A stretch of 64,000 bases of DNA from positions 1 through 64,000 of the forward strand of contig NZ_JAKHSK010000012.1 in the NCBI RefSeq assembly GCF_023499215.1. Reading direction: 5' to 3'. The stretch is from Zunongwangia pacifica (GTDB taxonomy: Bacteria > Bacteroidota > Bacteroidia > Flavobacteriales > Flavobacteriaceae). Shown here in pieces: positions 1,088 to 19,994 of the stretch (the stretch's first letter is position 1; the number at the start of each line of letters is the position of its first letter). The notes below the pieces were generated by a model that was not told the origin of the DNA, ran no database searches, and worked only from the letters and a program-made list of their open reading frames with translations. The translations under genes were made by a program, and so were the position numbers.

Positions 1088-1131
1088 TAGTAGCGGGAAC
1101 TGGACTCGAACCAGTGACCTTCGGGTTATGA
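1088..1131 (-). repeat. Attachment site core, left (displaced tRNA-fMet 3' end)
   Basis: This 44-base stretch is identical to 19995-20038 and to 56862-56905. In the intact tRNA it covers the anticodon loop through the 3' end plus three downstream bases. Only the 3' part of the tRNA is present here, so this is not a functional tRNA but the outer boundary of the inserted block. It marks the left end of element 1. Confidence 0.92.
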
Positions 1132-1172
1132 TTTTCAGGGGATTACGGAGGTGAGCAATATATGTATGCCGA

Positions 1173-1529: not shown

Positions 1530-1535
1530 TCTATT

Positions 1536-2372: not shown

Positions 2373-2405
2373 GATATAAATTTTATTGGTTTACTATGTA
2401 TGTTC

Positions 2406-2768
2406 TTAGAAAGGCAAATCGTCATCACCTGGAATTTCAATAAAGCTGAGACCTTGGTGTTCTACTGTGGTTTCTTTCGCAGCTTTTGGGCTGTCTAAGG
2501 ATTGAATTCTCCAACCTTGAATGGAATTGAAATACTTAGGAACTCCTTCTGGATTTATCCATTCTCTTCCTTTTAAGTTGATGTCAATTTTAACTAATTG
2601 GCCAACTGCGTAAGCATCTAGCATATCACATTGGTCTTTTATAAATTCCACAAGTATTTTTTGGGAATATTGTTCTTCTGTTGCAATAACTACTTCTCTT
2701 TTTTGAAAACCATTATTACCTATAATCTGTGTTTGGTTTAAGACTTTTATCTTTCCTGTTAATTCCAT
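2406..2768 (-). CDS. DUF3127 single-strand-binding-like protein
   Basis: The 120-residue protein begins MELTGKIKVL, has WINPEGVPKYFNSIQGWRIQ in the middle and ends in an acidic, aromatic tail (IEIPGDDDLPF). This is the pattern of DUF3127 proteins, small OB-fold relatives of SSB common in Bacteroidota chromosomes and mobile elements. The acidic tail with a terminal Phe resembles the SSB C-terminal tip that recruits partner proteins. A role with single-stranded DNA during element replication or recombination is inferred. It lies two bases downstream of the next minus-strand gene, so an operon is likely. Confidence 0.8.
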   Translation of the reverse strand: MELTGKIKVLNQTQIIGNNGFQKREVVIATEEQYSQKILVEFIKDQCDMLDAYAVGQLVKIDINLKGREWINPEGVPKYFNSIQGWRIQSLDSPKAAKETTVEHQGLSFIEIPGDDDLPF

Positions 2769-2770
2769 GT

Positions 2771-3076
2771 TTAATATTTTATGGCACTAAAAACCTTATC
2801 AAGATTCACTAATTTGTGAGTGTTACCTTGCTCTCTTAAATAGTCTGAAACTTCATCTAGCTTTTCATAAAGTTTGATAAATTCATAGTTTTTTTTGAAT
2901 GTTCTGTCTTCTTTTAAAATATCCTTGGGAAATTCTGATTCCAGAATATTGAGAGTTTTCATGCAGGCGTGATACCTTCTTTCTTCTTTAAGTAACCACC
3001 AATCTATTTTTCCTCTAGTGTAGAATCCGTTTACTGATAATGATTTTAGCTCGTTGACTAAATCAATAAATTTCAC
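2771..3076 (-). CDS. Hypothetical protein, 101 aa
   Basis: A small, highly charged and mostly helical protein (long Lys/Glu-rich stretches such as RRYHACMKTLNILESEFPKD) without signal peptide or membrane segment. No family is recognised. It is directly upstream of the DUF3127 gene with a two-base gap, so the two are probably translated from one message and may act together on DNA. A start at 3076 is followed downstream by an uninterrupted frame. Confidence 0.6.
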   Translation of the reverse strand: MKFIDLVNELKSLSVNGFYTRGKIDWWLLKEERRYHACMKTLNILESEFPKDILKEDRTFKKNYEFIKLYEKLDEVSDYLREQGNTHKLVNLDKVFSAIKY

Positions 3077-3195
3077 TTTAAATAAGGTTTTGATTAGCTT
3101 TTTTCTTCCTGTTGAAAATAAGATATAGAATATTTATCCATGCTAATAATAGCATTGGTAATAAGATTAGAATGATGATTCTCATTTAATGATTT

Positions 3196-3576
3196 TTATA
3201 ATTGAAATAGTTCAAAGATTAATATTGCTATCATCAATATTGATAATAACACGTAGGAGATAATTGTTTTTGGATAGGGATTAACTAAATGCTTTAATAC
3301 TTTATTAGGTAATAGAAGTGAAAGTAATTTTATGACAATAGAAGGAACTAATATAAGTCCAATTAAAAATGAAATGATTGCATAAATCCAATATGTTTTA
3401 AGAAAGAGATTGATAGCTAATAAGATGTAACCTATAAAAGGAGTCGTTCTTAAAAGCAAGCTTAAAAATGTATTATAGTCAGCCGTTATTGTTCCTTCTT
3501 TAATCCTTGATGAAATTGAGTTATGAATTCCAAAGATTATGAAAGACAACAAGAATAGAGCGTAATAGTGTTTCAT
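3196..3576 (-). CDS. Hypothetical membrane protein, 126 aa
   Basis: The protein has about four hydrophobic segments: residues 1-20, roughly 45-62, 65-90 and 103-124. The first segment could instead be a signal peptide. Short basic loops lie between them. No family is recognised. It is divergent from the XRE regulator gene at 3692, and the shared interval holds two TTATCA-N4-TGATAA palindromes, so its expression is probably controlled by that regulator. Small membrane proteins in this position are sometimes entry-exclusion or toxin-like proteins, but nothing here demonstrates it. Confidence 0.6.
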   Translation of the reverse strand: MKHYYALFLLSFIIFGIHNSISSRIKEGTITADYNTFLSLLLRTTPFIGYILLAINLFLKTYWIYAIISFLIGLILVPSIVIKLLSLLLPNKVLKHLVNPYPKTIISYVLLSILMIAILIFELFQL

Positions 3577-3621
3577 AGTAATGGTGTTTAATCTTGATTT
3601 ACTTTAACAAACATACTTATT

Positions 3622-3671
3622 TTATCATATATGATAACCAGTTCAGGTTGTTTAATTATCATTTTTGATAA
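3622..3671. promoter_or_regulatory. Paired palindromic operators between divergent genes
   Basis: Two perfect dyads of the form TTATCA-N4-TGATAA lie at 3622-3637 and 3656-3671, 34 bases apart centre to centre, in the 115-base gap between the minus-strand membrane protein gene and the plus-strand XRE gene. Spacing and symmetry fit cooperative binding of a dimeric XRE repressor that controls both promoters. That the 76-residue XRE protein is the binder is inferred. Confidence 0.7.
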
Positions 3672-3691
3672 CTATTCAATTAGTTATTTAA

Positions 3692-3922
3692 ATGAGCAAT
3701 AAAGAGCAACTACAGTTAGCAATTGGTAAGCGAATTAAGATGTTGAGAGAATCAAAAAAGATAACTCAACAAGACCTTGCTGCTAAGTGTAATATAGAAA
3801 AATCTAACTTTAGTCGCTTAGAAGCTGGAGGTACAAATCCTACTTTGTATACTCTTAAAATTATTGCCGATAATCTGGGGGTAAGTCTTTGTGATATTGT
3901 AAGTATGGAAGATACTAAATAA
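3692..3922 (+). CDS. XRE-family transcriptional regulator, 76 aa
   Basis: A single-domain Cro/C1-type helix-turn-helix protein: IGKRIKMLRESKKITQQDLAAK (about residues 11-32) carries the first helices and the Q-Q-D-L turn, and SNFSRLEAGGTNPTLYTLKIIA (about 38-59) the recognition helix and following helix. There is no effector or protease domain. It faces the membrane protein gene across an interval with two perfect palindromes, so autoregulation and control of the leftward genes is the simplest reading. The start at 3692 is 20 bases after the second palindrome. Confidence 0.85.
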   Translation: MSNKEQLQLAIGKRIKMLRESKKITQQDLAAKCNIEKSNFSRLEAGGTNPTLYTLKIIADNLGVSLCDIVSMEDTK

Positions 3923-4018
3923 AAATTTAGCTATTAATACTAATCTGTACTTTTTCATTCTTTTATAAAAACTTCAAAAAACAGGGCATTCACATTCGTA
4001 TGTAAACGAGTTAAGAAT

Positions 4019-4075
4019 AAAAAGTCCTACTTTTTCCATTCTACTATATAGTTAAAAAGAAAAAATAGGATTTTT
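4019..4075. repeat. 57-bp hairpin repeat, copy 1
   Basis: Arms AAAAAGTCCTACTTTTTCC and GAAAAAATAGGATTTTT flank a loop containing CTATATAG. A second copy at 16055-16111 is in the opposite orientation, with the same arms and an ACTATATATAG loop. Both copies end at the stop codon of a minus-strand gene (radC here, the large helicase there). They may be bidirectional terminators, or binding or origin sites specific to element 1. Confidence 0.65.
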
Positions 4076-4510
4076 CTATAGCATCCCTTCATCTGCAAAG
4101 CTTAGATAATTGTCTTTACTGAGTATGATGTGGTCAAGTAGTTTAATATCTAAAAAATCAGCAGCACTTTTTAATCTTCGTGTTAAGGTTCTATCTGCTT
4201 CGCTTGACTTTAAATTTCCACTAGGATGATTGTGAGCTAAAATTATGGCAGAAGCATTACATTTGAGAGCTACACTAAAAACTAATTTAGCATCTACCAA
4301 TGTTCCAGATACACCACCTTTTGATAGGGGATAGATGCCTAAAACTTGACTACCTCTGTTCAGCATAAGAATTTTAAATTCTTCCTGTAGCTCAATAGTT
4401 CCATCATTCCAACAAGCTCTTAGAATCTCATAAGAATGTCTACTACTTTTTATTTTTAAGCAACTATTGTTATTATTTGAGTACGAAACGTTTATTTCAG
4501 AAATTTCCAT
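4076..4510 (-). CDS. radC: RadC-like JAB/MPN-domain protein
   Basis: The 144-residue protein is the JAB (JAMM) domain of the RadC family without the N-terminal helix-hairpin-helix part of chromosomal RadC. The metal site motif is visible as H93-N-H95-P-S-G followed by S103-x-x-D106, with a likely catalytic Glu near residues 43-44. Short RadC proteins of this type are a hallmark of Bacteroidota mobile elements; their biochemical role is not settled. A second, diverged copy is in element 2 (47853-48302), so each element brought its own. The gene is last in its transcript and ends at the hairpin repeat 4019-4075. Confidence 0.88.
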   Translation of the reverse strand: MEISEINVSYSNNNNSCLKIKSSRHSYEILRACWNDGTIELQEEFKILMLNRGSQVLGIYPLSKGGVSGTLVDAKLVFSVALKCNASAIILAHNHPSGNLKSSEADRTLTRRLKSAADFLDIKLLDHIILSKDNYLSFADEGML

Positions 4511-4795
4511 TTTAATACGATTTTTTCTATTGATTATGTCAAAAAATTTATATAACTTTGCTCAAAGAAAGTTTCTTTCGAAACACTTCGGAGAAATTCT
4601 TTCATCAAATTTTATATGATATAGGAGAAGGGAATAGTCTAAAGTTTCTTTCTTTTTGGTACTTTTTCTTTCTTTAGCAAAATTCAAAAACCCTTATTTA
4701 GATTATATTATTACCTATCCAGGTACAATACTAATTTTAAAAGACCTGGATAAAAAGAAGCCTAATCCATATTATTATAGATTAGGCTTTTTTAT
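4511..4795. other. Intergenic stretch with dyads and a terminator
   Basis: No gene is seen in these 285 bases. TCCAGGT at 4718-4724 and ACCTGGA at 4744-4750 form an inverted pair; the same heptamer recurs at 5236-5242 and 19898-19904. A strong hairpin (AAGCCTAATC ... GATTAGGCTT, about 4759-4791) is followed by T runs on both strands and lies just beyond the stop of the 130-aa gene, so it is a probable terminator. A small hairpin GTTTC-TTTC-GAAAC at about 4571-4584 lies in the upstream region of radC. Confidence 0.55.
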
Positions 4796-5188
4796 CTAAA
4801 TAGAGTGTTCTAAAACACCATTGTTAGAGAATACTTCAGCTTTAGCTTTTACATTATTCTCCTCTCTAGGTTTTTGTTTTTGCTGAACAACTTCATCTGT
4901 AACATATACCCAAGTGTGATACAGTGTAATTTCTTCACCAGTCTCCTTGATAACGTAGTCAAAAGGCTCACACTCTTCTTTAATGATGCTTCCAGACATT
5001 TCTGTTCCCACTAGGGCAGAACAAGTCTGTTCGTCAAATGTAGAGGGGATAAATGCCCTTTTTGCAGTAGCGTAGAACTTCCCGGTAACTTTGCTCATTA
5101 CCATTTCTATGCCTCCTTGCAGTTCCAGAACAAAGAATGATGTTCCATCCTCTTTCTGTCTTTCTTTGTAGTTAATGATTCTAACCAT
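4796..5188 (-). CDS. Hypothetical protein, 130 aa
   Basis: A soluble protein, beta-rich at the start (VRIINYKERQKEDGTSFFVLELQGG), with a short FIPSTFDEQTCSALVG motif mid-protein and a charged, low-complexity C-terminus. I recall similar proteins as conserved hypotheticals in flavobacterial mobile elements near Sak4-like ATPases but cannot name a family. It has no signal peptide. It is followed by a strong hairpin terminator at about 4759-4791 and is divergent from the XRE-methylase operon at 5476. Confidence 0.65.
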   Translation of the reverse strand: MVRIINYKERQKEDGTSFFVLELQGGIEMVMSKVTGKFYATAKRAFIPSTFDEQTCSALVGTEMSGSIIKEECEPFDYVIKETGEEITLYHTWVYVTDEVVQQKQKPREENNVKAKAEVFSNNGVLEHSI

Positions 5189-5475
5189 TTCTTTAAATTT
5201 TTGAGTTGAAGTACACCACGTAGCAGTTTAAAAAGACCTGGAGAAAAATAAATATCAACTATCACCTTGAATTTAATATTCCTGCCAACAAAATTTTCAC
5301 GCTATATATTGTGGTGGGGGAGTTTCTCTTCCCAGAAATGGGTGGGGGTCTCCGAGATAGGTAGGTCAAGCGCTCACTTTAGGCTAGCTCCAAAAAATTT
5401 CGGAAAATTTTTTTAGCTTGTTGAAATTAACTGTACTTTTAGACAAGTTTTGACAAACTAGAAGATACCCCACTC
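5189..5475 (+). promoter_or_regulatory. Divergent control region with XRE-type palindrome
   Basis: This 287-base gap lies between the leftward 130-aa gene and the rightward defence operon. The dyad AGTTT-TGAC-AAACT lies at 5446-5459, 16 bases before the ATG of the XRE gene at 5476. That is a typical place for a controller-protein operator in restriction-modification-like systems. A G-rich patch (GTGGTGGGGG, ATGGGTGGGGG) at about 5311-5353 stands out from the AT-rich background. ACCTGGA occurs at 5236-5242. Confidence 0.5.
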
Positions 5476-5766
5476 ATGACCCTATCACAATTATTAAAAC
5501 ACAAAAGGGAGACCAAAGGTTTACTTTTACGTGAAGTAGCATCTATAGTAACTGTAGACACGGCTTTGATTAGTAAACTTGAAAAGGGAGATAGGAAACC
5601 TACAAGAGAGCAATTAAAAAAGTTGGCCATAGCTTTAGAGATAGAGCATGTTCATCTTTTAAAGTTGTGGTTGAGTGAAAAAGTATATGAAGGTGTTAAA
5701 GGAGAAGATGTTGCTGTGGATGCTGTAGAATTAGCGCTTAAAAGATTAAAAGAACAAGGAGAATAA
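5476..5766 (+). CDS. XRE-family regulator of the methylase operon
   Basis: A 96-residue protein with an N-terminal Cro/C1 HTH (LLKHKRETKGLLLREVASIVTVDTALISKLEKGDRKPTREQLKKLA, about residues 6-51) and an acidic helical tail. It is the first gene of the cluster, three bases before the methylase gene, and is preceded by a short palindrome at 5446-5459. Controller proteins of this size commonly time expression of restriction-modification genes so that methylation precedes cutting; that role is inferred from position. The alternative is general repression of the operon. Confidence 0.85.
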   Translation: MTLSQLLKHKRETKGLLLREVASIVTVDTALISKLEKGDRKPTREQLKKLAIALEIEHVHLLKLWLSEKVYEGVKGEDVAVDAVELALKRLKEQGE

Positions 5767-5769
5767 CCT

Positions 5770-8469
5770 ATGAATAGCAAAGAGATTCAACAGAATGTAC
5801 AGGTATTGCTAGACAACTTTACCGAAGAAGAGTTTATCTATGATTTTTTGATTGCTTATGGCACCTCAAAATCAGTTACTACAAGACTTAAAAAGGGAGA
5901 TTTTAATCTTTCAAAAGTTGATGGAGAAGTATTATATAAAAAGAAGATATTTTTTAAAGTAGAAGAAACTAGTAAACTTTTAAGTTCAATAGATACTATT
6001 TCTAAGGATGAAAGGATTTTAAAGCATAAACCACGTTTTGCTATTTTAACAGATTATGACCAGCTTGTAGCTAAAGACCTGAGATTAGGAACTACTAGAG
6101 ATATTAAACTTAAAGAGTTAGTTAATCATTTCGATTTCTTTTTACCTCTAGCTGGTAGCGAAGTTTATAATTCTAGTAATGATAATCAGGCTGATAGAGA
6201 TGCAGCTTACAAGATGGCTTTATTATATGATTATCTTCGAGAAGAAAACCCTGATATTTATAAGTCAAAGGAAAGTATTCATAACTTAAATATCTTCCTC
6301 TCAAGGTTGTTGTTTTGCTTTTTTGCAGAAGATACAGAGATTTTTGAGGAGGAGAGTATTTTTACAGATACTTTAGCGCAACACACCAATGGAAATGGTA
6401 GTGATACTCATGATTTTTTAAATGACTTATTTAAAAGGCTTAATACTAAAAAAGCTGATGGTTTTCCTGCTTATTTGCAAAAGTTCCCTTATGTAAATGG
6501 GGGGTTGTTTAATGATACCATAAGCTCTCCTCATTTTTCTGCAAAGGCTAGAAAAATTTTAATTGAGTTAGGTGAGCTTCAATGGAAAGATATTAACCCG
6601 GATATTTTCGGGTCTATGATTCAGGCAGTGGTAATAGATGAGTACCGTAGTGACTTAGGAATGCACTATACTTCGGTGCCAAATATATTAAAGCTTATTA
6701 AACCGTTGTTCTTAGATGAGTTGTATGAAGAGTTTGAAAAGTATGAAAACAATGTTTCTCAGTTAAGAAAACTAATAAATAGAATTTCTAAAATTAAATT
6801 TTTTGACCCTGCCTGTGGTAGTGGTAATTTCTTAATTATTACCTATAAGGAAATAAGAGTTTTAGAAATTAAAATTTTAAAACAAATAATTGATTTAACT
6901 CCAAACCCACAATTGGAGTTTACTCAGATTCGTTTATCACAGTTTTATGGTATAGAAATAGATGACTTTGCACATGAAATGGCAATACTTGCCTTGTGGT
7001 TAGCGGAGCACCAAATGAATAGAATATTCGAAGAGCAATTATTTGATTATGGTAAATCTGAACCAATCCTACCTTTAAAACAAGCAGGGCAAATTCAACA
7101 AGGGAATGCTACCAGAGTAGATTGGAAAGAAGTTTGTCCATCCAGAAGTAATGATGAAATATATATTGTTGGAAACCCTCCTTATTATGGTAGCAGAAAA
7201 CAAAATGAGGAACAAAAAGATGACTTAAAGCTTATTTTTAAAACTAACTATAAAAGTTTAGACTATATCTCTGCATGGTTTTATAAGGGAGCCAACTACA
7301 TTAATGGTTTTAACGCTAAATGTGCTTTTGTGTCGACTAATTCAATCTGCCAAGGATTATTAGTTTCTATAACTTGGAATAGAATTCTCACAGAAAAAAT
7401 AGAAATAGACTTCGCTCATCAATCTTTTAAATGGACTAATAATGCTAAAGGTAATGCAGGAGTAACCGTAATTATTGTTGGCTTGAGAAATAGCTCTAGT
7501 AAACCAAAACATTTGTTTACAGGTAACTTAAAAAAGGAAGTTAAAAACATTAACCCTTATCTAGTTGAAGCTTCAAATATAGTTGTTACCAAAAGAGAAA
7601 AAACTCTGTCTAAGTTTCCAGAAATGAATTTTGGAAATATGCCTGCTGATGGAGGAAATCTATTATTTACTCAAGAAGAAAAGAATGAGTTTTTAAATAA
7701 AGAGCCTAATGCTGAAAAATGGATAAAACCAATAATTTCTGCTCATGAATTTTTGAATGGAAACAATAGGTATTGTTTATGGTTAGAAGACATAAAGGAA
7801 GATGAATACTCAAAACTGCCTTTGGTAAAAGAAAGAGTTGATAATAATTATAATGTAAGAATAAAATCTTCTAGACCACAGCTTGCTGAAGTGCCTCATT
7901 TATTTGCTCAAATAACACAACCTCGAAATAAAAGCTTTATTTTAATACCAAGACACTCTTCAGAAAATAGAGATTACATTCCTATTGGTTTTTTTGATTC
8001 ATCATATAAAGCTGGTGATTCAAATTTAATAATAGCTACTGAAGAGCCTTGGCTTTTTGCTGTAATTACGAGTAGAATACATATGGTATGGGTTGATGCT
8101 GTTGGCGGTAAGCTAGAAACAAGGTACAGATATTCTGCTAAACTTTGCTATAATACATTCCCATTTCCAGAAATTTCTGAAAAACAAAAAGAAACTTTGA
8201 ACCAATATGTGTTTGATGTACTTGATGAACGAGCCAACTTTCCTGAGAAAACAATGGCTTGGTTATACAACCCAGACACCATGCCTAAAGGCTTAAAACA
8301 AGCTCACAAAAACCTGGATGAAGCTGTGGAAAAATGCTACAGACTCCAAGAATTTAAAAACGACACAGAGCGTTTAGAGTATCTTTTTAAATTGTATGAG
8401 GAGATGGTGAAAAAAGATACCTTATTTGCAAAAGAGAAAAAAAGGAAAACAACTAAGAGTAAAAAATAA
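5770..8469 (+). CDS. MmeI-like class I DNA methyltransferase
   Basis: The 899-residue protein has the central SAM-binding motif D346-P-A-C-G-S-G-N-F and the catalytic N469-P-P-Y, the NPPY signature of N6-adenine methylases with gamma-type order. Helical linker, methylase, target-recognition part (about 640-800) and C-terminal helical tail (MPKGLKQAHKNLDEAVEKCY, about 838-857) follow the MmeI / type IIL layout. The N-terminal ~170 residues do not show an obvious D...ExK nuclease motif, so cutting is more likely done by a partner. The next genes are a helicase (3-base gap) and a GIY-YIG protein. I recall a similar methylase-helicase-T5orf172 set as yeeA-yeeB-yeeC in Bacillus subtilis, unverified here. 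Expected role: site-specific host DNA marking and, with partners, restriction of foreign DNA. Confidence 0.88.
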   Translation: MNSKEIQQNVQVLLDNFTEEEFIYDFLIAYGTSKSVTTRLKKGDFNLSKVDGEVLYKKKIFFKVEETSKLLSSIDTISKDERILKHKPRFAILTDYDQLVAKDLRLGTTRDIKLKELVNHFDFFLPLAGSEVYNSSNDNQADRDAAYKMALLYDYLREENPDIYKSKESIHNLNIFLSRLLFCFFAEDTEIFEEESIFTDTLAQHTNGNGSDTHDFLNDLFKRLNTKKADGFPAYLQKFPYVNGGLFNDTISSPHFSAKARKILIELGELQWKDINPDIFGSMIQAVVIDEYRSDLGMHYTSVPNILKLIKPLFLDELYEEFEKYENNVSQLRKLINRISKIKFFDPACGSGNFLIITYKEIRVLEIKILKQIIDLTPNPQLEFTQIRLSQFYGIEIDDFAHEMAILALWLAEHQMNRIFEEQLFDYGKSEPILPLKQAGQIQQGNATRVDWKEVCPSRSNDEIYIVGNPPYYGSRKQNEEQKDDLKLIFKTNYKSLDYISAWFYKGANYINGFNAKCAFVSTNSICQGLLVSITWNRILTEKIEIDFAHQSFKWTNNAKGNAGVTVIIVGLRNSSSKPKHLFTGNLKKEVKNINPYLVEASNIVVTKREKTLSKFPEMNFGNMPADGGNLLFTQEEKNEFLNKEPNAEKWIKPIISAHEFLNGNNRYCLWLEDIKEDEYSKLPLVKERVDNNYNVRIKSSRPQLAEVPHLFAQITQPRNKSFILIPRHSSENRDYIPIGFFDSSYKAGDSNLIIATEEPWLFAVITSRIHMVWVDAVGGKLETRYRYSAKLCYNTFPFPEISEKQKETLNQYVFDVLDERANFPEKTMAWLYNPDTMPKGLKQAHKNLDEAVEKCYRLQEFKNDTERLEYLFKLYEEMVKKDTLFAKEKKRKTTKSKK

Positions 8470-8472
8470 GTT

Positions 8473-10428
8473 ATGCCTAATCTTATAGAAGTTACATATA
8501 AACAAACGGGGAAGAGTAAAAAAACAAATGAGTTAGGTATGCGTGAAATGCAGGCAGAAGCATTTAAAGCAAATTCAGCTCAGTATTTACTAATTAAAGC
8601 ACCACCAGCTTCAGGTAAGTCTAGGGCTTTAATGTTTATAGCTTTAGAGAAGTTATATAAACAAGGAATTAAAAAGGTTATTGTTGCAGTGCCAGAAAAG
8701 TCTATTGGAGCCTCTTTTGGCACTACAGAATTGAAAAAGTTTGGTTTTTTTACGGATTGGGAACCAAACCCGAGATATAATCTTTGTACACCTGGACCCG
8801 AAAAAAGTAAAGTATCAGCATTTTTAGAGTTTCTAGACAATAATGAGCAAATTCTTATTTGCACGCATGCTACATTACGTTTTGCTTTTCAAGGGTTAGA
8901 CGAAAAAAAATTAGACAACACATTGGTAGCCATAGATGAGTTTCACCATGTATCTGCTGAGGGAGATAATAGGTTGGGTGAAGTTTTAAAAAGCGTTATG
9001 GCTAAGTCTAATGCTCATATTATAGCAATGACAGGCTCTTATTTTAGAGGCGATAATATACCGGTTCTTATGCCGGAAGATGAGGCTAAATTTACTAAGG
9101 TTACTTATAACTATTACCAGCAATTAAATGGTTATGAGTTTTTAAAATCTTTAGGTATAGGCTACCATTTCTATACAGGGAGATATTTTAAAAAGCAACC
9201 AGACAAAAATATGTCTGCATTGGAAGAGGTTTTAGATGTTAACAAGAAAACAATAATTCATATACCAAGTGTAAACTCTGCGGAATCTTCTAGAGAAAAA
9301 TTTGAAGAAGTAGGCCATGTAATAGATGTTTTAGGAGAAATTGACTATCAGGATGAACATACCGGAGTAATTTATGTTAAAAGTAAAAAAGCAGGACGAA
9401 CATTAAAAGTAGCAGACTTAGTAAATGATGACCCAAAATCTAGAGACAAAATTGCAAATTATTTAAGAGGGGTTAAATCTCCTGATGATATTGATATTAT
9501 TATAGCTCTAGGTATGGCCAAAGAAGGTTTTGATTGGCCTTACTGTCAACATGCTTTAACAATAGGTTACAGAGGTTCACTTACTGAAATTATACAGATT
9601 ATAGGTAGAGCCACTAGAGATAGTTCTAATAAAACTCATGCACAGTTCACCAACTTGGTAGCAGAACCAGATGCAGAAAATGATGATGTAAAAGTTGCTG
9701 TAAATAATATGCTCAAAGCTATAACGGCATCTTTATTAATGGAACAAGTACTTGCTCCTAATTTTAAGTTTAAGCTTAAAAGAGATGATGAGGATGAAAG
9801 TGAAGATGATGACGATACAATAAGAATTAGGGAGTTTAAACTTCCTACTTCTCAAAGAGCAAAGGATATTATAGAAACAGATTTAAATGACCTTAAAGCA
9901 CGAATTCTGCAAGATGACCAAATGCTTAAAGCTATGCCGGGTAATTTAGATGCAGAAACTATAAATACAGTGTTAATACCCAAAATAATACGTGAAGTAT
10001 ATCCTGATTTAGATGATGAAGATGTTGAAGCTGTTAGGCAACATGTTGTTGTAGATTCTGTTATAAAAAATGCTACTATAGAAGAGCAAGGAGACAAAAA
10101 ATTTATTAGAATGGCTAATAGTTTTGTGAATATTGACGATATTCATATAGATTTAATTGACCAAGTAAACCCATTTCAAAAGGCATTTGAAATATTGTCA
10201 AAGGCTGTAACAGCACAAACGCTTAAATTAATAGATGAACATATTCAATCTACAAAGATTGCAATGACAGAGGATGAGGCTATTTTGTTATGGCCAAAGA
10301 TTAAGGAGTGGGTGACAAAGACAGGGGAACAACCAAGTTTACAGGCTTTTGACCATAAAGAAAAGAGAATGGCGGAGGCAATTATATTTTTGAGAGAATT
10401 AAAACGTCAGAGAGATTTAAATGGATAA
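8473..10428 (+). CDS. DEAD/DEAH-box (SF2) helicase of defence cluster
   Basis: The 651-residue protein has SF2 motifs in order: motif Ia region Q27, Walker A A43-P-P-A-S-G-K-S50, motif II D155-E-F-H-H159, motif III M186-T-G-S-Y, and motif VI Q375-I-I-G-R-A-T-R382. A very acidic linker (DDEDESEDDDD, about 435-446) precedes a helical C-terminal part. It starts three bases after the methylase gene and overlaps the following GIY-YIG gene by eight bases, so translation is coupled. It would supply ATP-driven DNA translocation or unwinding to the methylase-nuclease complex, as the R subunit helicase does in type I systems; that analogy is inference. Confidence 0.88.
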   Translation: MPNLIEVTYKQTGKSKKTNELGMREMQAEAFKANSAQYLLIKAPPASGKSRALMFIALEKLYKQGIKKVIVAVPEKSIGASFGTTELKKFGFFTDWEPNPRYNLCTPGPEKSKVSAFLEFLDNNEQILICTHATLRFAFQGLDEKKLDNTLVAIDEFHHVSAEGDNRLGEVLKSVMAKSNAHIIAMTGSYFRGDNIPVLMPEDEAKFTKVTYNYYQQLNGYEFLKSLGIGYHFYTGRYFKKQPDKNMSALEEVLDVNKKTIIHIPSVNSAESSREKFEEVGHVIDVLGEIDYQDEHTGVIYVKSKKAGRTLKVADLVNDDPKSRDKIANYLRGVKSPDDIDIIIALGMAKEGFDWPYCQHALTIGYRGSLTEIIQIIGRATRDSSNKTHAQFTNLVAEPDAENDDVKVAVNNMLKAITASLLMEQVLAPNFKFKLKRDDEDESEDDDDTIRIREFKLPTSQRAKDIIETDLNDLKARILQDDQMLKAMPGNLDAETINTVLIPKIIREVYPDLDDEDVEAVRQHVVVDSVIKNATIEEQGDKKFIRMANSFVNIDDIHIDLIDQVNPFQKAFEILSKAVTAQTLKLIDEHIQSTKIAMTEDEAILLWPKIKEWVTKTGEQPSLQAFDHKEKRMAEAIIFLRELKRQRDLNG

Positions 10429-11635
10429 GAAGAAAACGACATTAGATGATATTTTTAATGATGATGAGTTTGGGTTGTTAGAATCTAAACCGAAAGTTTC
10501 TACCATAAAATCAGAGGAAGATAGGCTAATAGATTCATTTGAAGAAGTTAATGTATTTATAGATAAAAATAATAGAGAGCCAGGCAGGGGTAGTATGTCT
10601 GAATATGGACTACAGGCTAAGCTTAAAAATTTTAGACAAGACGAAGAAAAGAAGAAGTTGTTGAAACCTTTTGATAGGCATAATTTATTAGGTTATGTTG
10701 AGATTGATAACCCTAGTTTAGATGATATATTGAATGATGATGACTTAGGATTATTAGAAACAGATAAAGATTTATCTATTTTTCAATTTAAGCATACACC
10801 TAAACAAGAAGACAGAGCTGAAACTGACTTTGTTGCTCAAAGACAACCTTTGTCTGAAAATGAATTTGAATTATATGAAAAAATGTTTCATAAGGTTCAT
10901 CAGGAAATTAAGGAAGGAAAGCGAGAAATTAAGGAGTTCCGTAACATAGAGAAGAATCTTCATGTCGGAAATTTTTATGTTATGGATGGAATTCTACTCT
11001 ATTTGGAGTCTGCTGACCTAGAAAAAACAGAGTGGGAGCAAAAGTCCGGTAACAGGGTTAGGATTGAAGGTAGGACAAGAACCATTTTTGAGAATGGAAC
11101 TTTTAGTAATATGTTGTATAGGTCTTTAGGAAAACAAATTCAGAAGAATGGAAAACTTATTACCAACTCTAATGAATATACAGAGAATCAGCTTTTTGTT
11201 AACTCAGGTTTAGTACAAGAAGAGGATATACAGACTGGGTGGATTTATGTATTGAAATCCAGGTCAACAGACCCTAGAATATCAGGTATAGAAGATTTAC
11301 ATAAAATAGGATTTTCTAGTACAAGTGTAGATGATAGAATAAAAAATGCTAAAAGGGAAGCTACCTATCTCTATTCCGATGTGAAAAAAGTGGCAACCTA
11401 TAAGGTTTATAATAGAAATGCAGACAAGCTAGAGGCTTTACTCCATAGGTTCTTTGCATCGGTTTGTTTAGATGTTGAGTTCACCAATAGCAAAGGACAG
11501 AGACTTAATCCTAGAGAATGGTTTGTAGTACCCTTCGAAGTAATTGAAGAAGCCATTCAACTAATTTTAAATGGCAGTGTAGTTGATTATATGTATGACT
11601 CAGAAAGTAAGATTATTAAATTAAGAAATAGATAG
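10421..11635 (+). CDS. GIY-YIG (T5orf172-type) nuclease protein
   Basis: The C-terminal part of this 404-residue protein is a T5orf172/Mug113-type GIY-YIG domain: G273-W-I-Y at the first strand, H294-K-I-G-F at the second, then R307, catalytic Glu at about E338, and a W367 near the end. The N-terminal ~150 residues carry a repeated acidic motif, LDDIFNDDEFGLLE at 8-21 and LDDILNDDDLGLLE at 100-113, separated by a disordered-looking linker. Residues 150-260 are an unassigned alpha/beta region. Overlap of eight bases with the helicase gene suggests a shared complex. It is the probable nuclease of the methylase-helicase set. The repeated motif looks like a short docking sequence. Confidence 0.82.
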   Translation: MDKKKTTLDDIFNDDEFGLLESKPKVSTIKSEEDRLIDSFEEVNVFIDKNNREPGRGSMSEYGLQAKLKNFRQDEEKKKLLKPFDRHNLLGYVEIDNPSLDDILNDDDLGLLETDKDLSIFQFKHTPKQEDRAETDFVAQRQPLSENEFELYEKMFHKVHQEIKEGKREIKEFRNIEKNLHVGNFYVMDGILLYLESADLEKTEWEQKSGNRVRIEGRTRTIFENGTFSNMLYRSLGKQIQKNGKLITNSNEYTENQLFVNSGLVQEEDIQTGWIYVLKSRSTDPRISGIEDLHKIGFSSTSVDDRIKNAKREATYLYSDVKKVATYKVYNRNADKLEALLHRFFASVCLDVEFTNSKGQRLNPREWFVVPFEVIEEAIQLILNGSVVDYMYDSESKIIKLRNR

Positions 11636-11651
11636 TTAATAGTATAGAATA

Positions 11652-12251
11652 ATGGCTACCGATTTGCATATTGTAAGTAATTCTAGGTCTTTCTCTAAAG
11701 TACAAATTGAGCAACTTAAAGATGAAATTTTAGAGAAACTAAAGTCTTTAAATCTTGAACCTATTGTGGTTATTGGTGTAGGTAAATTAGAAGGAGATTG
11801 GAGTTATGAGTTTCCTGAATATTACAATGCAGAGTTAGATTTATTTGAGCCAGATGAAAACGCACAGGAGCTAATTTCTTTTAATAGTCCTTTTGTATTC
11901 AACATAAGAGTTTATGAAAATTGTATTGAATTAATTACTATTTATAAGTATCGATTTTTATATGAAGATGAAAAGATTGATAATTTTAATCAATTCCGAA
12001 AAAATATCTATGATATAATTTCAATTTTTGGAGGTACTGAAATTATCTATCTGGCAGACAATAGTTGCAATAAACTTAGTGACTATTTAGAGTTACGGCT
12101 ATGGGAACAAGGAGCTTCCTATGAAGATATTAAACAAGAAATTATAAATAAAGAATTACCATTTGTTTCTGATTATGGCAGATTGAAGTTAAATAATCTA
12201 AATTATAGAAGCATTAAAGAAGTGGTTTTTGACGAGTTTAAAGACATTTAA
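11652..12251 (+). CDS. Hypothetical protein, 199 aa, in defence cluster
   Basis: No family is recognised. The protein is soluble, acidic and alpha/beta in appearance (IVVIGVGKLEGDW near 38-50; FVFNIRVYENCIELITIY near 81-98; GTEIIYLADNS near 127-137). It lies 16 bases after the GIY-YIG gene and five bases before the putative ADP-ribosyltransferase gene, so it is co-transcribed with both. Its tight pairing with the latter makes it a candidate antitoxin or immunity protein. That is only positional inference. Confidence 0.6.
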   Translation: MATDLHIVSNSRSFSKVQIEQLKDEILEKLKSLNLEPIVVIGVGKLEGDWSYEFPEYYNAELDLFEPDENAQELISFNSPFVFNIRVYENCIELITIYKYRFLYEDEKIDNFNQFRKNIYDIISIFGGTEIIYLADNSCNKLSDYLELRLWEQGASYEDIKQEIINKELPFVSDYGRLKLNNLNYRSIKEVVFDEFKDI

Positions 12252-12256
12252 TAATT

Positions 12257-12958
12257 ATGGATGTAACAGAAATGTATAGTAGTTTAGAAGAAGTAAAAGC
12301 TGATTTTTCATTGTTGAATGAAGAGTTTGAAAAAATCAAAAGTAAAGAAGGAGTGTTTAAATATCCTGACTACACTAATGACAGATTCGCAGAGATAAAT
12401 AATTTGATAAATAATTCTGATTTTGAAGAACCTGTTCGAATCAACAAAGCATGGTCTTTAATGAAAGAAATAAGAAAAATTCATTTTACAGGAAAACTAA
12501 GTGTAAAACATATCTTAACTTTTGCTAATTCTTCAGAGGTTTTACTAAGATTTTCAAAATATTGTACGGAATTAGATGATGAAGAATACTGGAGAGGTCT
12601 TGCAGATGCGTACATAACTCAAGATTATGAAAGTATCTCTTACGAAATTATAAGAAGCCTTTTTTGTGCTAACAGGAATAAAAAGGAGTGTTTAATGAAT
12701 GAGGAAGAAAGTAGCTTTTTTAAAAGTCTACCCCAAAAAATAAAAGTTTATAGAGCAATGACTTTAAAAGAAAGTGAAAGTGGTAAATTTAGATTTAGTT
12801 GGACTTTAGATGAAGAAATTGCTGAAAATTTTTTAGAAAGAAATTCAATGATTTATGATGAAGAGATGACCATTCATGAAATGGAAATTGATAAGTCAGA
12901 CGCTTTAGCATATTTTAAAAGTAGAAATGAAGAGGAAATTATTTATTTAAAAAAGTAA
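12257..12958 (+). CDS. Putative ADP-ribosyltransferase-fold protein
   Basis: The C-terminal ~75 residues of this 233-residue protein show the R-S-E signature of arginine-type ADP-ribosyltransferases. R166 sits in KVYRAM, the S-x-T-like strand is S181-W-T183 followed by LDEEIAENF, and the E-x-E turn is E225-E-E227 in RNEEEIIY. The N-terminal 150 residues are helical and unassigned. Many phage- and defence-linked proteins share this ISWTxD...R.E.EII outline. It is five bases after the 199-aa gene. The target is unknown and could be host or phage RNA, DNA or protein. The call rests on motif spacing only. A non-catalytic ART fold remains possible. Confidence 0.55.
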   Translation: MDVTEMYSSLEEVKADFSLLNEEFEKIKSKEGVFKYPDYTNDRFAEINNLINNSDFEEPVRINKAWSLMKEIRKIHFTGKLSVKHILTFANSSEVLLRFSKYCTELDDEEYWRGLADAYITQDYESISYEIIRSLFCANRNKKECLMNEEESSFFKSLPQKIKVYRAMTLKESESGKFRFSWTLDEEIAENFLERNSMIYDEEMTIHEMEIDKSDALAYFKSRNEEEIIYLKK

Positions 12959-12977
12959 AAAATAAAGCTTTAATAAA

Positions 12978-13694
12978 GTGTTTGATACTAAAACAATTGA
13001 AAAATTAGGTTATTATGTTTATGCTTTGGTTCATCCGCAAACTAATGTTCCTTTTTACATAGGTAAAGGGCTTGGGAATAGAGTGTTTGAGCATAAGACA
13101 CTGGCAATTTCTACAAAGGAAGATAGCCTTAAACTTGATTTAATTAGAGGTTTAATTTCAAAAGGGTTGGAAGTTAACCATGTAATTATTCGGCATGGAT
13201 TAAGTGAGGCTGAGGCATTTGAAATTGAAGCGTCATTAATAGATTTTGGAAATTTTTTAGGGTTAAACCTAAGTAATTTGGTGGATGGCCATCATGTTAA
13301 TTTTAAAGGATTAATGACCACCAATGAAATTATAAGGTTGCATAATTCACCTCCTCTACTTGAATTATTACACCCAGTAATTATAATAAATATTAATAAA
13401 AAATATAACAGAGGTATTAAGACTGATACTATTTACGCTGCCACAAAAGAAGCTTGGGTGGTAGGACAACATAAGCGAAATACTGTAAAATATGCTTTAT
13501 CCGAATATTCAGGTATTATAATTGAAGTCTTTGAAATTATGGAATGGTATCCTGTGCCCATTACTAATGCTAATATTAGATGGGGGTTTCATGGTAAGGT
13601 GGCTGAAGATGATGTAAGAAGCCTTTATATTAATAAATCAATTGCACATACTAAGAAAAAAGGAGCGGCTAATCCTATTAGATATATTCTTTGA
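12978..13694 (+). CDS. LEM-3-type GIY-YIG nuclease family protein
   Basis: This 238-residue protein starts with the GTG codon at 12978; no upstream in-frame ATG keeps the spacing to the previous stop. The N-terminal domain has the LEM-3-like GIY-YIG pattern: Y13-V-Y15, P25-F-Y-I-G-K-G31, then N34-R35 and H39, and a Glu-rich helix EAEAFEIEASLI (about 77-88) containing the metal-binding Glu. The C-terminal ~130 residues carry TKEAWVVGQHKR-type sequence found repeatedly behind this domain, function unknown. Being last in the plus-strand cluster, it could be a second nuclease of the system or a separate acquisition. Confidence 0.75.
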   Translation: MFDTKTIEKLGYYVYALVHPQTNVPFYIGKGLGNRVFEHKTLAISTKEDSLKLDLIRGLISKGLEVNHVIIRHGLSEAEAFEIEASLIDFGNFLGLNLSNLVDGHHVNFKGLMTTNEIIRLHNSPPLLELLHPVIIININKKYNRGIKTDTIYAATKEAWVVGQHKRNTVKYALSEYSGIIIEVFEIMEWYPVPITNANIRWGFHGKVAEDDVRSLYINKSIAHTKKKGAANPIRYIL

Positions 13695-13764
13695 CTTTAA
13701 TTAGAAGTATTAAAATGAACTAATATACAACTCCGATTAATCATACATAAAATTTAATTTAAAC

Positions 13765-14058
13765 ATGCAAATAGAAGAGCTCAAGCTAATGTGGATATCT
13801 TCATTAATTATAACAGATAAGAGTAGCATTGTCTCAACTGAAACATTTCAAGATTTAGCCAATTACACTATAGAAAAAACAACCTTAAATATTAATATTT
13901 TGAGTAAAGATTTTTATCTTAATGAGGTTGATTTTAAGTCTTTTATAATAGATGAAATTACTAAGAAAATAATTTCTAGTGGTTTGGATTATGAACATAG
14001 TATTGATAATTTCAATTTAAGGTGTGAAAAAGATATAATTATTAGGGCCGACTTATAA
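13765..14058 (+). CDS. Hypothetical protein, 97 aa
   Basis: A small soluble protein with no recognised family; alternating hydrophobic and charged residues suggest a small alpha/beta fold. It is 70 bases after the LEM-3-type gene and ends inside a strong bidirectional terminator hairpin (its TAA at 14056-14058 is in the loop), which closes the plus-strand cargo block. It may be the last cargo gene or a backbone gene. Confidence 0.5.
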   Translation: MQIEELKLMWISSLIITDKSSIVSTETFQDLANYTIEKTTLNINILSKDFYLNEVDFKSFIIDEITKKIISSGLDYEHSIDNFNLRCEKDIIIRADL

Positions 14059-14070
14059 GTCAGCCCTAAT
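14041..14070. terminator. Bidirectional terminator between convergent genes
   Basis: ATTAGGGC at 14041-14048 pairs with GCCCTAAT at 14063-14070, with a further inner palindrome GACTTATAAGTC and a T run on the right. It separates the plus-strand cargo from the leftward DUF3871 gene and overlaps the end of the 97-aa gene. Confidence 0.85.
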
Positions 14071-14073
14071 TTT

Positions 14074-15108
14074 TCAACTCAAAAACCAATGGCGGTTAGT
14101 ATCACCACTGATAGCTTTTCCTAAGCCTTTAGAAAATTCAAAGGCATTCACATTTCTTGCAAGAAAAGAGTCGATATAAGAGCTCTTATTAGCTCCTGTA
14201 AACAAGTTGTATACTTTCCATAGATTGATGTTTCCATACTCATCTTTACAAAAGCTGTTATCTAAATAAAAGTCTTTTGCCACTGTAGAAATTTGTCCGT
14301 CATTGAGTAGTAATTCAGGGACTTGAGATTTCTCTTGTTTGGGTAGATAATTGTATAATCTGGCTCTACCTATGAGTTGAGCAAATTGGTTTTCGGTAAT
14401 GCTTTGCTGAGATAGTTTTCTCATATCTTTCAAATGCTCCTTTGCATTGTAGTTTTCCAAAAGATTCAAAATTTTAGATTGCAGCTCTGTTTTACTTCCT
14501 GCTCTTATTTCATCTTGAAATCCATCTGTAGAGATGCATAAATTACAGCACACCATATTTTGAAAACCGACGAAGAACTTAAATTTTTCATAGCTCTTTC
14601 TATTGTACAAGTTTTCTTGGTTATAAGCTCTTACGCCACCAATGGTAAGAGCAACCTCATTACCGTTAATAGTTTCCGTAATAGAAGGGACACGTACAAT
14701 AAATGCCATTCTTTCAAAATACTGAGTCTTTTCATGTTCTAGGAGCTCTTTTACCGGCTTGTAAATAGCATCGGCAGTTCTACCTTTAATTTGGTGAGAT
14801 ACTCTTATTTCAGGAGTTTGGATAGTATGATTAGAGAATGTTTGTGCTATACAGTCCTGAGCAACCTCAATAAATTCTTGATGTGCTAAAGTCTTCTCGT
14901 TGTCTTTTGAAAACACGGGAATGATACAATCATTTTGTAAACAAGAAAGGCTAACCTCTTTCGTGTTAGCCTCTATAAATGGATTGCTCTCATATATTTT
15001 ATGCTCTCCAGGTACTTTAAGATTTGAAATAAATTCGACATTACCTGGAATGGAATTAACTATTCCGTGATGTGGCTTACTAAGCTCTGTTGTTGACATT
15101 GTTTCCAT
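14074..15108 (-). CDS. DUF3871 family protein
   Basis: The 344-residue protein matches the DUF3871 pattern I know from Bacteroidota mobile elements: an N-terminal NPFIEANT segment (about 42-49), the ...EIRVSHQIKGRTADAIYKP region (about 100-119), ALTIGGVRAYN (about 153-163) and a C-terminal LWKVYNLFTGANKSSYIDSFLARN (about 294-317). These proteins resemble DUF932-type phage/plasmid proteins; the molecular role is unknown. Its start overlaps the end of the Sak4-like ATPase gene by about 29 bases (an internal ATG at 15099 is an alternative start), so the pair is translationally coupled and probably acts in element DNA processing. Confidence 0.8.
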   Translation of the reverse strand: METMSTTELSKPHHGIVNSIPGNVEFISNLKVPGEHKIYESNPFIEANTKEVSLSCLQNDCIIPVFSKDNEKTLAHQEFIEVAQDCIAQTFSNHTIQTPEIRVSHQIKGRTADAIYKPVKELLEHEKTQYFERMAFIVRVPSITETINGNEVALTIGGVRAYNQENLYNRKSYEKFKFFVGFQNMVCCNLCISTDGFQDEIRAGSKTELQSKILNLLENYNAKEHLKDMRKLSQQSITENQFAQLIGRARLYNYLPKQEKSQVPELLLNDGQISTVAKDFYLDNSFCKDEYGNINLWKVYNLFTGANKSSYIDSFLARNVNAFEFSKGLGKAISGDTNRHWFLS

Positions 15109-15943
15109 TATGTGAAAAGTTTTGTGGGTTAACTAATTTTTCTAATTGGACTTTTTTTGCTTGATATAAAGCTTGGAGTGGCATCTGAAAACTTGGATGC
15201 TTTCTGTAGAGTTCCATTAATTGACTAACCGATAAGCATTCTTCAATTTGTTGTTTTACCTCTTCTTCCTTAATTGGAGATACACACCATTCAAGGATAC
15301 GTTTTCCTGTAGCTGAGTTAATCATAAATTCAGGTTTACCCGAAAATAGATTAGTTCTGTCTTTGCTTGCTCTGGCAAAATGCTTGGTGTCAATATCAAA
15401 GACAATGGTAAATTCATAAGAAACATCGTTTCTCTGTATAGCCTTCAATCCAACCTTTTCTGGTATATATTTACCATCTTTTTGTTGTAGAACGTAATCT
15501 TGCTTAGTCCTCATTGTTGCTATAACGTGAGTATTACATTGAAGTATTTTATCAATAAATGCCTTTTGTCTTGGAGTTACCTTATTCCAATTACTAAATG
15601 AGTTTCCAGGTAATTTCGAATGAAAATCTAAAAGCTCATCCCATACGTGAGAAATTGAATCTAGTATGATTACATCCATCTCAGCATTTTCACAAACTTC
15701 TATTGCTTGTATAAACTTCTCTGGTGTATAAGGTGGTTGCAATGGTAAAACATTATAGTTACCCAAATGAGCATAAAGGTCTGCTGAACCATTTTCAGTG
15801 TCGATAACAGCAACTTTGGAGAGTTGCTCTTTAGTGAGTCCCTTAGCAAGCAAAAGAGAGCTTAAAGTCTTTCCTGCTCCTGATGAACCTTGCAAAGCCA
15901 TTTTAATTTTGGCTTGTTTTCTTTCGGATTGTCTTAACTGCAT
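15080..15943 (-). CDS. Sak4-like RecA-fold AAA ATPase
   Basis: The 287-residue protein has Walker A G19-S-S-G-A-G-K-T26, VIDTENGSADLY (about 47-58) and Walker B V91-I-I-L-D95-S-I-S-H, the compact RecA-like core of phage Sak4 / AAA_24 ATPases. Phage Sak4 proteins bind single-stranded DNA and help annealing or strand exchange. Here it is followed by DUF3871 with overlapping frames and preceded by the large helicase gene, forming the DNA-processing module of element 1. It suggests phage-like replication or recombination rather than conjugative transfer. Confidence 0.82.
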   Translation of the reverse strand: MQLRQSERKQAKIKMALQGSSGAGKTLSSLLLAKGLTKEQLSKVAVIDTENGSADLYAHLGNYNVLPLQPPYTPEKFIQAIEVCENAEMDVIILDSISHVWDELLDFHSKLPGNSFSNWNKVTPRQKAFIDKILQCNTHVIATMRTKQDYVLQQKDGKYIPEKVGLKAIQRNDVSYEFTIVFDIDTKHFARASKDRTNLFSGKPEFMINSATGKRILEWCVSPIKEEEVKQQIEECLSVSQLMELYRKHPSFQMPLQALYQAKKVQLEKLVNPQNFSHNGNNVNNRA

Positions 15944-16016
15944 AGTATTAAGTATTAAGAGTTAAATATTAATGTGAAGTGTTTAAGATGAATCTGAATT
16001 GATTCGCTATAAAATG

Positions 16017-16046
16017 AAAAGACCCACATAAATGTGAGTCTTTTTG
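16017..16046 (-). terminator. Hairpin terminator after the large helicase gene
   Basis: AAAAGACCCACAT and ATGTGAGTCTTTTT form an imperfect stem around an AA loop with T/A runs on both sides. It lies between the helicase stop and the start of the Sak4-like gene, so it probably separates their transcripts or attenuates read-through. Confidence 0.65.
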
Positions 16047-16054
16047 ATATGGTT

Positions 16055-16111
16055 TAAAAAATCCTATTTTTTCAAATACACTATATATAGAAAAGGAAAA
16101 ATAAGGACTTT
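16055..16111. repeat. 57-bp hairpin repeat, copy 2 (inverted)
   Basis: This is the reverse-complement counterpart of 4019-4075: arms AAAAAATCCTATTTTTTC and GGAAAAATAAGGACTTT around a loop with ACTATATATAG. It touches the stop codon of the large helicase gene. The two copies bracket most of element 1 in opposite orientations. Confidence 0.65.
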
Positions 16112-18545: not shown

Positions 18546-18592
18546 CGTGAAAATTTAACTGTGCTATAAAATTATTATAACACAGTTACTAA

Positions 18593-19804: not shown

Positions 19805-19825
19805 TGATTTCGAGTGTGTTAGTGT

Positions 19826-19862
19826 GTTGAAAATTGATGCCTCGAAGTTGAAAATTGATACC
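19826..19862. repeat. Direct repeats upstream of integrase 1
   Basis: GTTGAAAATTGATGCC (19826-19841) and GTTGAAAATTGATACC (19847-19862) are 21 bases apart, two helical turns, each near a CCTCGAA word. The spacing and position between the integrase start and the attachment core suggest integrase arm-type sites or sites for a regulator of the integrase. Confidence 0.5.
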
Positions 19863-19991: not shown

Positions 19992-19994
19992 ACT

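What the first reader, a model, noticed from the sequence alone, without database searches (positions are those of the whole stretch)
5476..13694. Methylase-helicase-GIY-YIG defence cluster with extra effectors
Seen: XRE controller, 899-aa MmeI-like methylase without evident N-terminal nuclease motif, SF2 helicase, GIY-YIG protein, then an unknown protein, an ART-like protein and a LEM-3-type GIY-YIG protein, all plus strand with tiny gaps. Known: methylase-helicase-T5orf172 sets exist (I recall yeeABC of B. subtilis). Inference: the core trio is a restriction-like system, and the last three genes may be a second-line abortive module.
Basis: partly seen in the sequence, partly recalled or inferred. 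Interest (0 to 1): 0.7.

Follow-up and report, generated by a model that had tools for sequence, protein, structure and literature searches.

The report
Layered restriction cassette on tRNA island
A mobile DNA island carries a known methylate-and-cut operon followed by a known type of enzyme that cuts phage DNA with disguised bases and an untested toxin-like gene, so the row looks like stacked modules guarding against different phages rather than one new machine.

Summary
The seven genes are there as described. Behind the XRE gene, three are the known DnmA-YeeB-YeeC set: an MmeI-family methylase without nuclease motif, an SF2 helicase and a T5orf172 GIY-YIG protein. A D...ExK motif is present in 4 of 4 fetched solo MmeI-type enzymes and in 0 of 24 trio methylases. 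The 'LEM-3-type' gene matches PD-T4-3/CMoRE, published as cutting 5hmC/5ghmC DNA without abortive infection, so 'abortive module' is wrong for it. The ART-like call holds: R, SxT and ExE positions are conserved and the C-terminal model matches ART folds, at modest Z; relatives occur in phages and plasmids. The unknown gene stays unknown. In 36 surveyed loci unk and art occur in none and CMoRE in one, so the last three genes are not part of the core. Relatives carry other modules beside or inside the trio: McrBC, CmdTAC, DRT3, LmuB, AbiE, RhuM. The cassette lies on an 18.9-kb island between exact 44-bp copies of the tRNA-Met 3' half, in tandem with a conjugative-type element carrying Pycsar and AbiE. 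Best reading: stacked, complementary defence modules; all function is inferred.

The parts
1088..1131 (+). left att copy: 44-bp direct repeat of the tRNA-Met 3' half
   Evidence: exact; three copies in the window and three in the whole assembly
5476..5766 (+). XRE/HTH_3 regulator
   Evidence: Pfam HTH_3 1.9e-8; 75-76% identical gene at the same place in L001 and L002
5770..8469 (+). DnmA/MmeI-family N6-adenine methylase, 899 aa, no nuclease motif
   Evidence: MmeI_Mtase 3e-105, TRD 1.6e-75; DPACGSGNF and NPPY motifs; no D...ExK motif in the N-terminus, which 4 of 4 solo MmeI-type enzymes have
8473..10428 (+). YeeB-type SF2 helicase, 651 aa
   Evidence: DEAD 2.6e-10, Helicase_C 1.2e-5; IDEFHH and QIIGR conserved among 28 aligned proteins
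10421..11635 (+). YeeC-type GIY-YIG (MUG113/T5orf172) protein, 404 aa
   Evidence: MUG113 4.2e-14, T5orf172 6.1e-11; GWIY, KIG, R, E, H and PREWF conserved at 90% or more in 29 aligned proteins
11652..12251 (+). unk, 199 aa, no family
   Evidence: no Pfam, PADLOC, NCBIfam or PHROG hit at E<=1; relatives in two other genomes, full length in one
12257..12958 (+). ART-like protein, 233 aa, of a family found in phages
   Evidence: PHROG 4776 9.2e-23 and 25265 7.6e-19; R166, T183, E225, E227 invariant, S181 nearly so; model C-terminus matches ART folds at modest Z
12978..13694 (+). PD-T4-3/CMoRE-type modification-dependent nuclease, 238 aa
   Evidence: PADLOC 2.3e-47; PDB 9u75 1.9e-30; GYYVY...FYIG and the aligned R and E kept
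13765..14058 (+). small ORF, 97 aa, next to DUF3871; not clearly part of the cassette
   Evidence: 35% relative at the same place in L001
14074..15108 (-). DUF3871 protein, island backbone
   Evidence: Pfam 7.3e-138; relatives in L001, L002, L003
15080..15943 (-). AAA_24 ATPase, island backbone
   Evidence: Pfam 1.3e-19; relatives in L001, L002, L003
18593..19873 (-). tyrosine integrase of the island
   Evidence: Phage_integrase 5.1e-15, Arm-DNA-bind_5 6.1e-15; 73% relative in L001, only 26% in L002 and L003
19995..20038 (+). right att copy of the island (junction with the second element)

Best explanation
A mobile island carries stacked, complementary anti-phage modules transcribed in one direction. 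Layer 1: the DnmA-YeeB-YeeC-type set. The methylase marks host DNA at one asymmetric site; on unmarked DNA the same site-recognition protein recruits the helicase, which moves along DNA, and the GIY-YIG partner cuts (a type I-like division of labour). Layer 2: CMoRE cuts DNA with modified cytosines that could evade layer 1. Layer 3, weakest: the ART-like protein, with or without unk, modifies a target using NAD+ and stops growth or phage production. Shown: gene content, order, families, lack of the methylase nuclease motif, island borders, different cargo in related islands. Inferred: every activity, the order of action, co-transcription, and any ART/unk partnership.
For: All three core genes in 33 of 36 loci, though the loci were chosen by a giy1 or helicase match. 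D...ExK in 4 of 4 solo MmeI-type enzymes, which show no helicase or giy1 match by tblastn in the 7-10.5 kb held, and in 0 of 24 trio methylases with a readable N-terminus and 0 of 4 plasmid relatives followed by a helicase match. CMoRE assigned by family and solved-structure match over nearly its full length. Three of four islands with this RadC/DUF3871 backbone carry a modified-DNA (type IV-type) enzyme beside the trio: CMoRE in the window and L002, McrC with an AAA protein in L003. Other trio loci carry recognised defence genes: CmdT/CmdC (L089), Drt3a/Drt3b (L029), LmuB (L021), AbiEi/AbiEii (L008). BREX plus the type IV enzyme BrxU is published as complementary protection (PMC8565348, abstract). 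Deleting dnmA and yeeB homologues in Vibrio crassostreae raised sensitivity to some phages (as cited in PMC9973331).
Against: In B. subtilis, deleting dnmA did not change plasmid transformation and deleting trio genes did not change infection by three phages; the authors judge the set a relic (PMC9973331, PMC7261158; passages). The type IV pairing rests on four related islands, in one of which (L001) none is recognised. In a Flavobacteriaceae sample CMoRE and the trio helicase share only the window's own genome (10 and 11 of 397). The acidic run of the CMoRE loop is missing here. 2 of the 24 trio methylases (L009, L010) have a bare ExK-like string near the old motif, without the D. unk has no assigned fold or function. 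No expression or methylation data.
Confidence: 0.55

Rival explanations
1. The three downstream genes are unrelated passengers of an island cargo slot; they happen to lie behind the trio and each works alone, with no complementary logic.
For: unk, art and CMoRE each occur without the trio elsewhere. Cargo differs in all four islands. In other loci some genes behind the trio look by eye like ordinary non-defence genes.
Against: Same strand, gaps of 5-19 nt, and two different type IV-type enzymes in three of four islands.
Confidence: 0.4
2. The trio no longer restricts; the methylase is an orphan epigenetic regulator, and only CMoRE (and perhaps ART) defends.
For: B. subtilis results (PMC9973331, PMC7261158).
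Against: All three genes are intact here and helicase and GIY-YIG motifs are conserved across the survey, which suggests selection on them and not on the methylase alone.
Confidence: 0.15
3. unk and ART form an antitoxin-toxin pair that triggers abortive infection.
For: 5-nt spacing; ART-like residues and fold; another trio operon holds CmdT and CmdC of the ART-based system CmdTAC; a unk relative lies 272 nt behind two ORFs that by eye resemble an antitoxin-Fic pair.
Against: The pair is not conserved: unk has no match in the phage and plasmid collections that hold 52 and 13 ART relatives, nor beside the ART relatives of two genomes, and the two unk loci show no ART (one is a short contig). 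PADLOC has no hit for this ART at E<=1.
Confidence: 0.3
4. All seven genes are one integrated system.
For: One strand, tight spacing.
Against: 0 of 36 surveyed loci hold unk or art; 1 of 36 holds CMoRE.
Confidence: 0.04

Closest known systems
DnmA-YeeB-YeeC of Bacillus subtilis and homologues (MmeI-like methylase, helicase, T5orf172 protein)
   Same: gene order, families, methylase without nuclease motif
   Different: XRE in front here and in two related islands; downstream cargo; different phylum; restriction not seen in B. subtilis
PD-T4-3 / CMoRE (PMC12923530)
   Same: GIYxY-YIG motif with third tyrosine, aligned catalytic R and E, nearly full-length similarity including the C-terminal part
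   Different: acidic run of the autoinhibitory loop absent; lies behind a methylation-based operon, whereas the paper describes single-component systems
pEFER island: BREX plus type IV enzyme BrxU (PMC8565348)
   Same: methylation-based defence next to a modified-DNA nuclease
   Different: unrelated proteins; tested there, inferred here
CmdTAC (PD-T4-9; PMC11618068, abstract)
   Same: ART-type effector; CmdT/CmdC genes sit inside a trio operon in relative L089
   Different: PADLOC does not match the window's ART to CmdT, and no SecB match is listed for the eight proteins scanned
PHROG 4776/25265 phage proteins (e.g. LeBron gp117)
   Same: sequence family of the ART-like gene
   Different: there in phage or plasmid gene runs; annotated as hypothetical

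Membership tests
DnmA-YeeB-YeeC set | MmeI-family methylase lacking the N-terminal nuclease motif | tested here: met
DnmA-YeeB-YeeC set | SF2 helicase directly downstream | tested here: met
DnmA-YeeB-YeeC set | T5orf172/GIY-YIG protein next | tested here: met
DnmA-YeeB-YeeC set | m6A at a non-palindromic site | not testable with these tools
   needs long-read methylation data
CMoRE / PD-T4-3 | GIYxY-YIG motif with third tyrosine (all identified members, PMC12923530) | tested here: met
   GYYVY...FYIG
CMoRE / PD-T4-3 | acidic autoinhibitory loop (the paper says most members, so not strictly defining) | tested here: not met
   gap at the acidic run in the alignment to 9u75; no run of four acidic residues there in the five other copies aligned either
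CMoRE / PD-T4-3 | two-domain similarity over the full length | tested here: met
   query 2-236 of 238 aligned
CMoRE / PD-T4-3 | cleavage of 5hmC/5ghmC DNA | not testable with these tools
   bench assay needed
R-S-E class ADP-ribosyltransferase (class name recalled) | R, S-x-T, E-x-E residues | tested here: met
   R166, T183, E225, E227 invariant in 9 and in 14 aligned proteins; S181 not invariant
R-S-E class ADP-ribosyltransferase (class name recalled) | ART fold | tested here: inconclusive
   C-terminal matches include KptA/Tpt1 Z up to 6.1, Vis 4.3, ExoS 4.3, ParT 4.2; best Foldseek PDB E 0.56
R-S-E class ADP-ribosyltransferase (class name recalled) | NAD+-dependent transfer | not testable with these tools
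   bench assay needed
CmdTAC | CmdT-type ART with SecB-like CmdC beside it | tested here: not met
   no PADLOC hit for unk or ART at E<=1; no SecB Pfam hit listed for the eight proteins
MmeI-type (IIL/IIG) single-chain restriction enzyme | N-terminal D...ExK nuclease motif | tested here: not met
unk-ART as a conserved toxin-antitoxin pair | pair recurs together in other genomes | tested here: not met

The most novel reading that the evidence does not exclude
The trio operon works as a docking site for second-line modules, and here it has taken up a new ART-based module built from a phage protein family (PHROG 4776) with unk as its partner, giving three layers: unmarked DNA, disguised DNA, and a last-resort NAD+-using effector.
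Probability: 0.25. Interest if true: 0.65.

Novelty: new variant of a known kind. Interest (0 to 1): 0.45.

Why it matters
It separates two things that the row of genes blurs: the core trio is a known but poorly understood set, and its cargo is exchangeable. If the pairing with type IV enzymes holds, it is a second, unrelated example of the BREX plus BrxU logic of covering both plain and disguised phage DNA. The slots beside and inside the trio operon held recognised defence genes in several relatives, so they are a place to look for untested ones; the ART-like gene, from a phage family of unknown function, is one candidate.

Tried and rejected
Rejected: a hidden nuclease in the methylase N-terminus; BREX or DISARM membership (only hits to parts of their methylases); ART as CmdT. 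unk relatives in phages, plasmids or viral contigs: none found (with a relative as query). Led nowhere: unk structure from a single sequence (pLDDT 42) and its profile against PDB (best E 0.74); ART against PDB by sequence (best E 0.66); viral scans with two single ART proteins before a four-row alignment found 16 loci; inverted repeats in front of the XRE gene gave only AT-rich pairs. Helical-bundle rows rank above ART rows and concern the N-terminal helices. PMC2731913 (the MmeI family paper) is not held; what it says is taken from PMC7261158 and PMC9973331. Search 122 asked for PD-T4-3, CMoRE, DnmA, YeeB and T5orf172, two or more together: 3 papers, none holding both a CMoRE and a trio name; the other paper searches showed no such pairing in their listings, and most subscription papers are not held.

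The 36 loci were found by giy1 or helicase matches, so trio completeness is conditional; 7 of them hold under 3 kb behind giy1. L021 gave no methylase N-terminus. The plasmid comparison used 8 of 296 matching records: 4 of the 6 listed rows whose match starts at residue 86-88, and 4 rows matching from residue 1 or 21. RhuM in L013 and L014, AbiE in L011 and L013, Fic in L020 and L028 rest on BLAST clusters, not on family scans.
Full report
Observation. The seven plus-strand ORFs exist at the stated coordinates. Spacings from the coordinates are 3, 3, -8 (overlap), 16, 5 and 19 nt; an eighth ORF of 97 aa follows after 70 nt. The window is the start of a contig of a 5.1-Mb assembly of 100 contigs.

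Core trio. The 899-aa protein matches all five MmeI Pfam domains in order and MmeI itself (5hr4, E 1.1e-186, but only from residue 86). Methylase motifs DPACGSGNF and NPPY are present. I compared it with plasmid relatives (8 of 296 matching records fetched). Four whose match starts at residue 87-88 (L101-L104) carry a D...ExK string (4 of 4) and show no helicase or giy1 match by tblastn in the stretch held. Four matching from residue 1 or 21 (L098, L099, L100, L105) lack it (0 of 4); three of these have both helicase and GIY-YIG genes next door, and L098 shows the first part of a helicase match before the record ends. In the trio survey the D...ExK string is in 0 of 24 methylases with a readable N-terminus, window included; two (L009, L010) have a bare ExK-like EEK string near that place without the D. 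The helicase and the T5orf172/MUG113 protein follow; IDEFHH and QIIGR are conserved among 28 aligned helicases and GWIY, KIG, R, E, H, PREWF among 29 GIY-YIG proteins (the N-terminal 153 residues of the helicase alignment show no column at the 95% threshold, so Walker A was not assessed there). This is the DnmA-YeeB-YeeC arrangement. In B. subtilis, deleting dnmA did not change plasmid transformation and deletions did not change infection by three phages; the authors call it a relic, and cite Vibrio crassostreae homologues whose deletion raised sensitivity to some phages (PMC9973331, PMC7261158; passages).

The LEM-3-type gene. It matches PADLOC PD-T4-3 (E 2.3e-47), PHROG 5356 (E 3.2e-47) and the solved chains 9u75 and 9u7u, named GIY-YIG domain-containing protein; that these are the CMoRE structures is my inference, since the parts of the paper I read (1-3 of 6) do not show the codes. 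The paper (PMC12923530) renames PD-T4-3 as CMoRE, shows degradation of 5hmC and 5ghmC DNA, and reports normal growth at high phage load, hence direct rather than abortive defence. The three tyrosines, the aligned R and E and nearly full-length similarity are kept; the acidic run of the loop is not.

The ART-like gene. Pfam gave nothing above its cut-offs. PHROG 4776 and 25265 match. tblastn finds 52 of 50,697 phage records, 51 of them mycobacteriophages, and 13 of 72,556 plasmid records; 2 other genomes of 395 sampled in the phylum hold a relative; a four-row profile finds 16 IMG/VR loci. R166, T183, E225 and E227 are invariant in 9 and in 14 aligned proteins. The AlphaFold2 model has mean pLDDT 79. 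VIA-align rows that reach the C-terminus are KptA/Tpt1 (Z up to 6.1), Vis, ExoS, ParT, iota Ia, VIP2 and IcmQ; higher rows are helical bundles matched to the N-terminus. That these C-terminal rows share the ADP-ribosyl-transferase fold is recalled knowledge. Foldseek's best PDB E-value is 0.56; two viral predicted models are below 1e-7. The Z values are modest, so the fold is supported, not proven.

unk. No family at E<=1. Of 395 phylum genomes, 3 match including its own; of 395 order genomes, only its own. One full-length relative lies 272 nt behind two ORFs that by eye look like an antitoxin and a Fic protein. The single-sequence model failed.

Do the last three genes belong to the trio? In 36 loci found by giy1 or helicase, 33 hold all three core genes (incomplete: L018, L026, L028); unk and art occur in 0, CMoRE in 1, L002, where it overlaps the end of giy1. 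Seven of the 36 hold under 3 kb behind giy1, so a distant copy there would be missed. CMoRE matches 10 of 397 Flavobacteriaceae-sample genomes at E<=1e-8, 5 of them over nearly the full length including the window's; the trio helicase matches 11 of 397 at E<=1e-60; only the window's genome is in both lists. So the three are not a unit with the trio.

What occupies the slots. Four loci share the RadC and DUF3871 backbone: window with unk-ART-CMoRE, L001 with two unassigned genes and a small ORF, L002 with CMoRE and unassigned genes, L003 with an AAA protein plus McrC (PF10117 E 2.4e-60). Only L001 shares the window's integrase closely (73%; L002 and L003 26%). In 9 of the 32 loci with methylase and helicase on one strand, over 500 nt of extra sequence lies between them (L006, L007, L009, L013, L014, L021, L024, L025, L089): RhuM, AlbA_2, a sub-threshold PIN hit, and in L089 CmdT and CmdC (PADLOC E 9.4e-82 and 1.3e-55). 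Other neighbours: AbiEi/AbiEii in front (L008), Drt3a/Drt3b (L029) and LmuB (L021) behind. These are selected, related loci, so no enrichment is claimed.

Mobile setting. A 44-bp sequence, the 3' half of tRNA-Met, occurs exactly at 1088-1131, 19995-20038 and 56862-56905, the last overlapping the tRNA-Met gene at 56864-56937, and at no other place of the assembly with up to 2 mismatches. L001 shows its island between two tRNA-Met genes. The cassette island therefore spans 1088-20038 with its integrase at the right end, in tandem with a second element up to 56905 with TraG, TraM and coupling-protein matches, AbiE and Pycsar genes.

Reading. The row is best seen as stacked modules on a mobile island: a known methylation-based set, a known type of modified-DNA nuclease, and an untested ART-like gene. 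The complementary logic follows the published BREX plus BrxU case (PMC8565348, abstract). All activities here are inferred.

Noticed in passing
20038-56905: second element in tandem at the same tRNA-Met site, with its own integrase (20145-21410), TraG and TraM Pfam matches and a coupling protein
   Followed up: partly
54561-56039: Pycsar pair: 2TM effector/PycTM (E 8e-66) and PycC cyclase (E 5e-155)
   Followed up: partly
50639-52313 (-): AbiEi/AbiEii pair, PADLOC E 1e-68 and 6e-102
   Followed up: partly
39386-44033 (-): four-gene run: type II-like methylase, unassigned, BrxC/D-like ATPase (Pfam E 1.4e-6), unassigned; possibly an undescribed methylase plus ATPase system
   Followed up: partly
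L089 12608-13859: CmdT and CmdC genes, with an unmatched 81-aa ORF, between methylase and helicase of a trio operon
   Followed up: partly
L001 11245-12703: two genes without a Pfam match above cut-off or a PADLOC match (316 and 168 aa, the second membrane-like by eye) in the slot behind the trio; possibly a new module
   Followed up: partly
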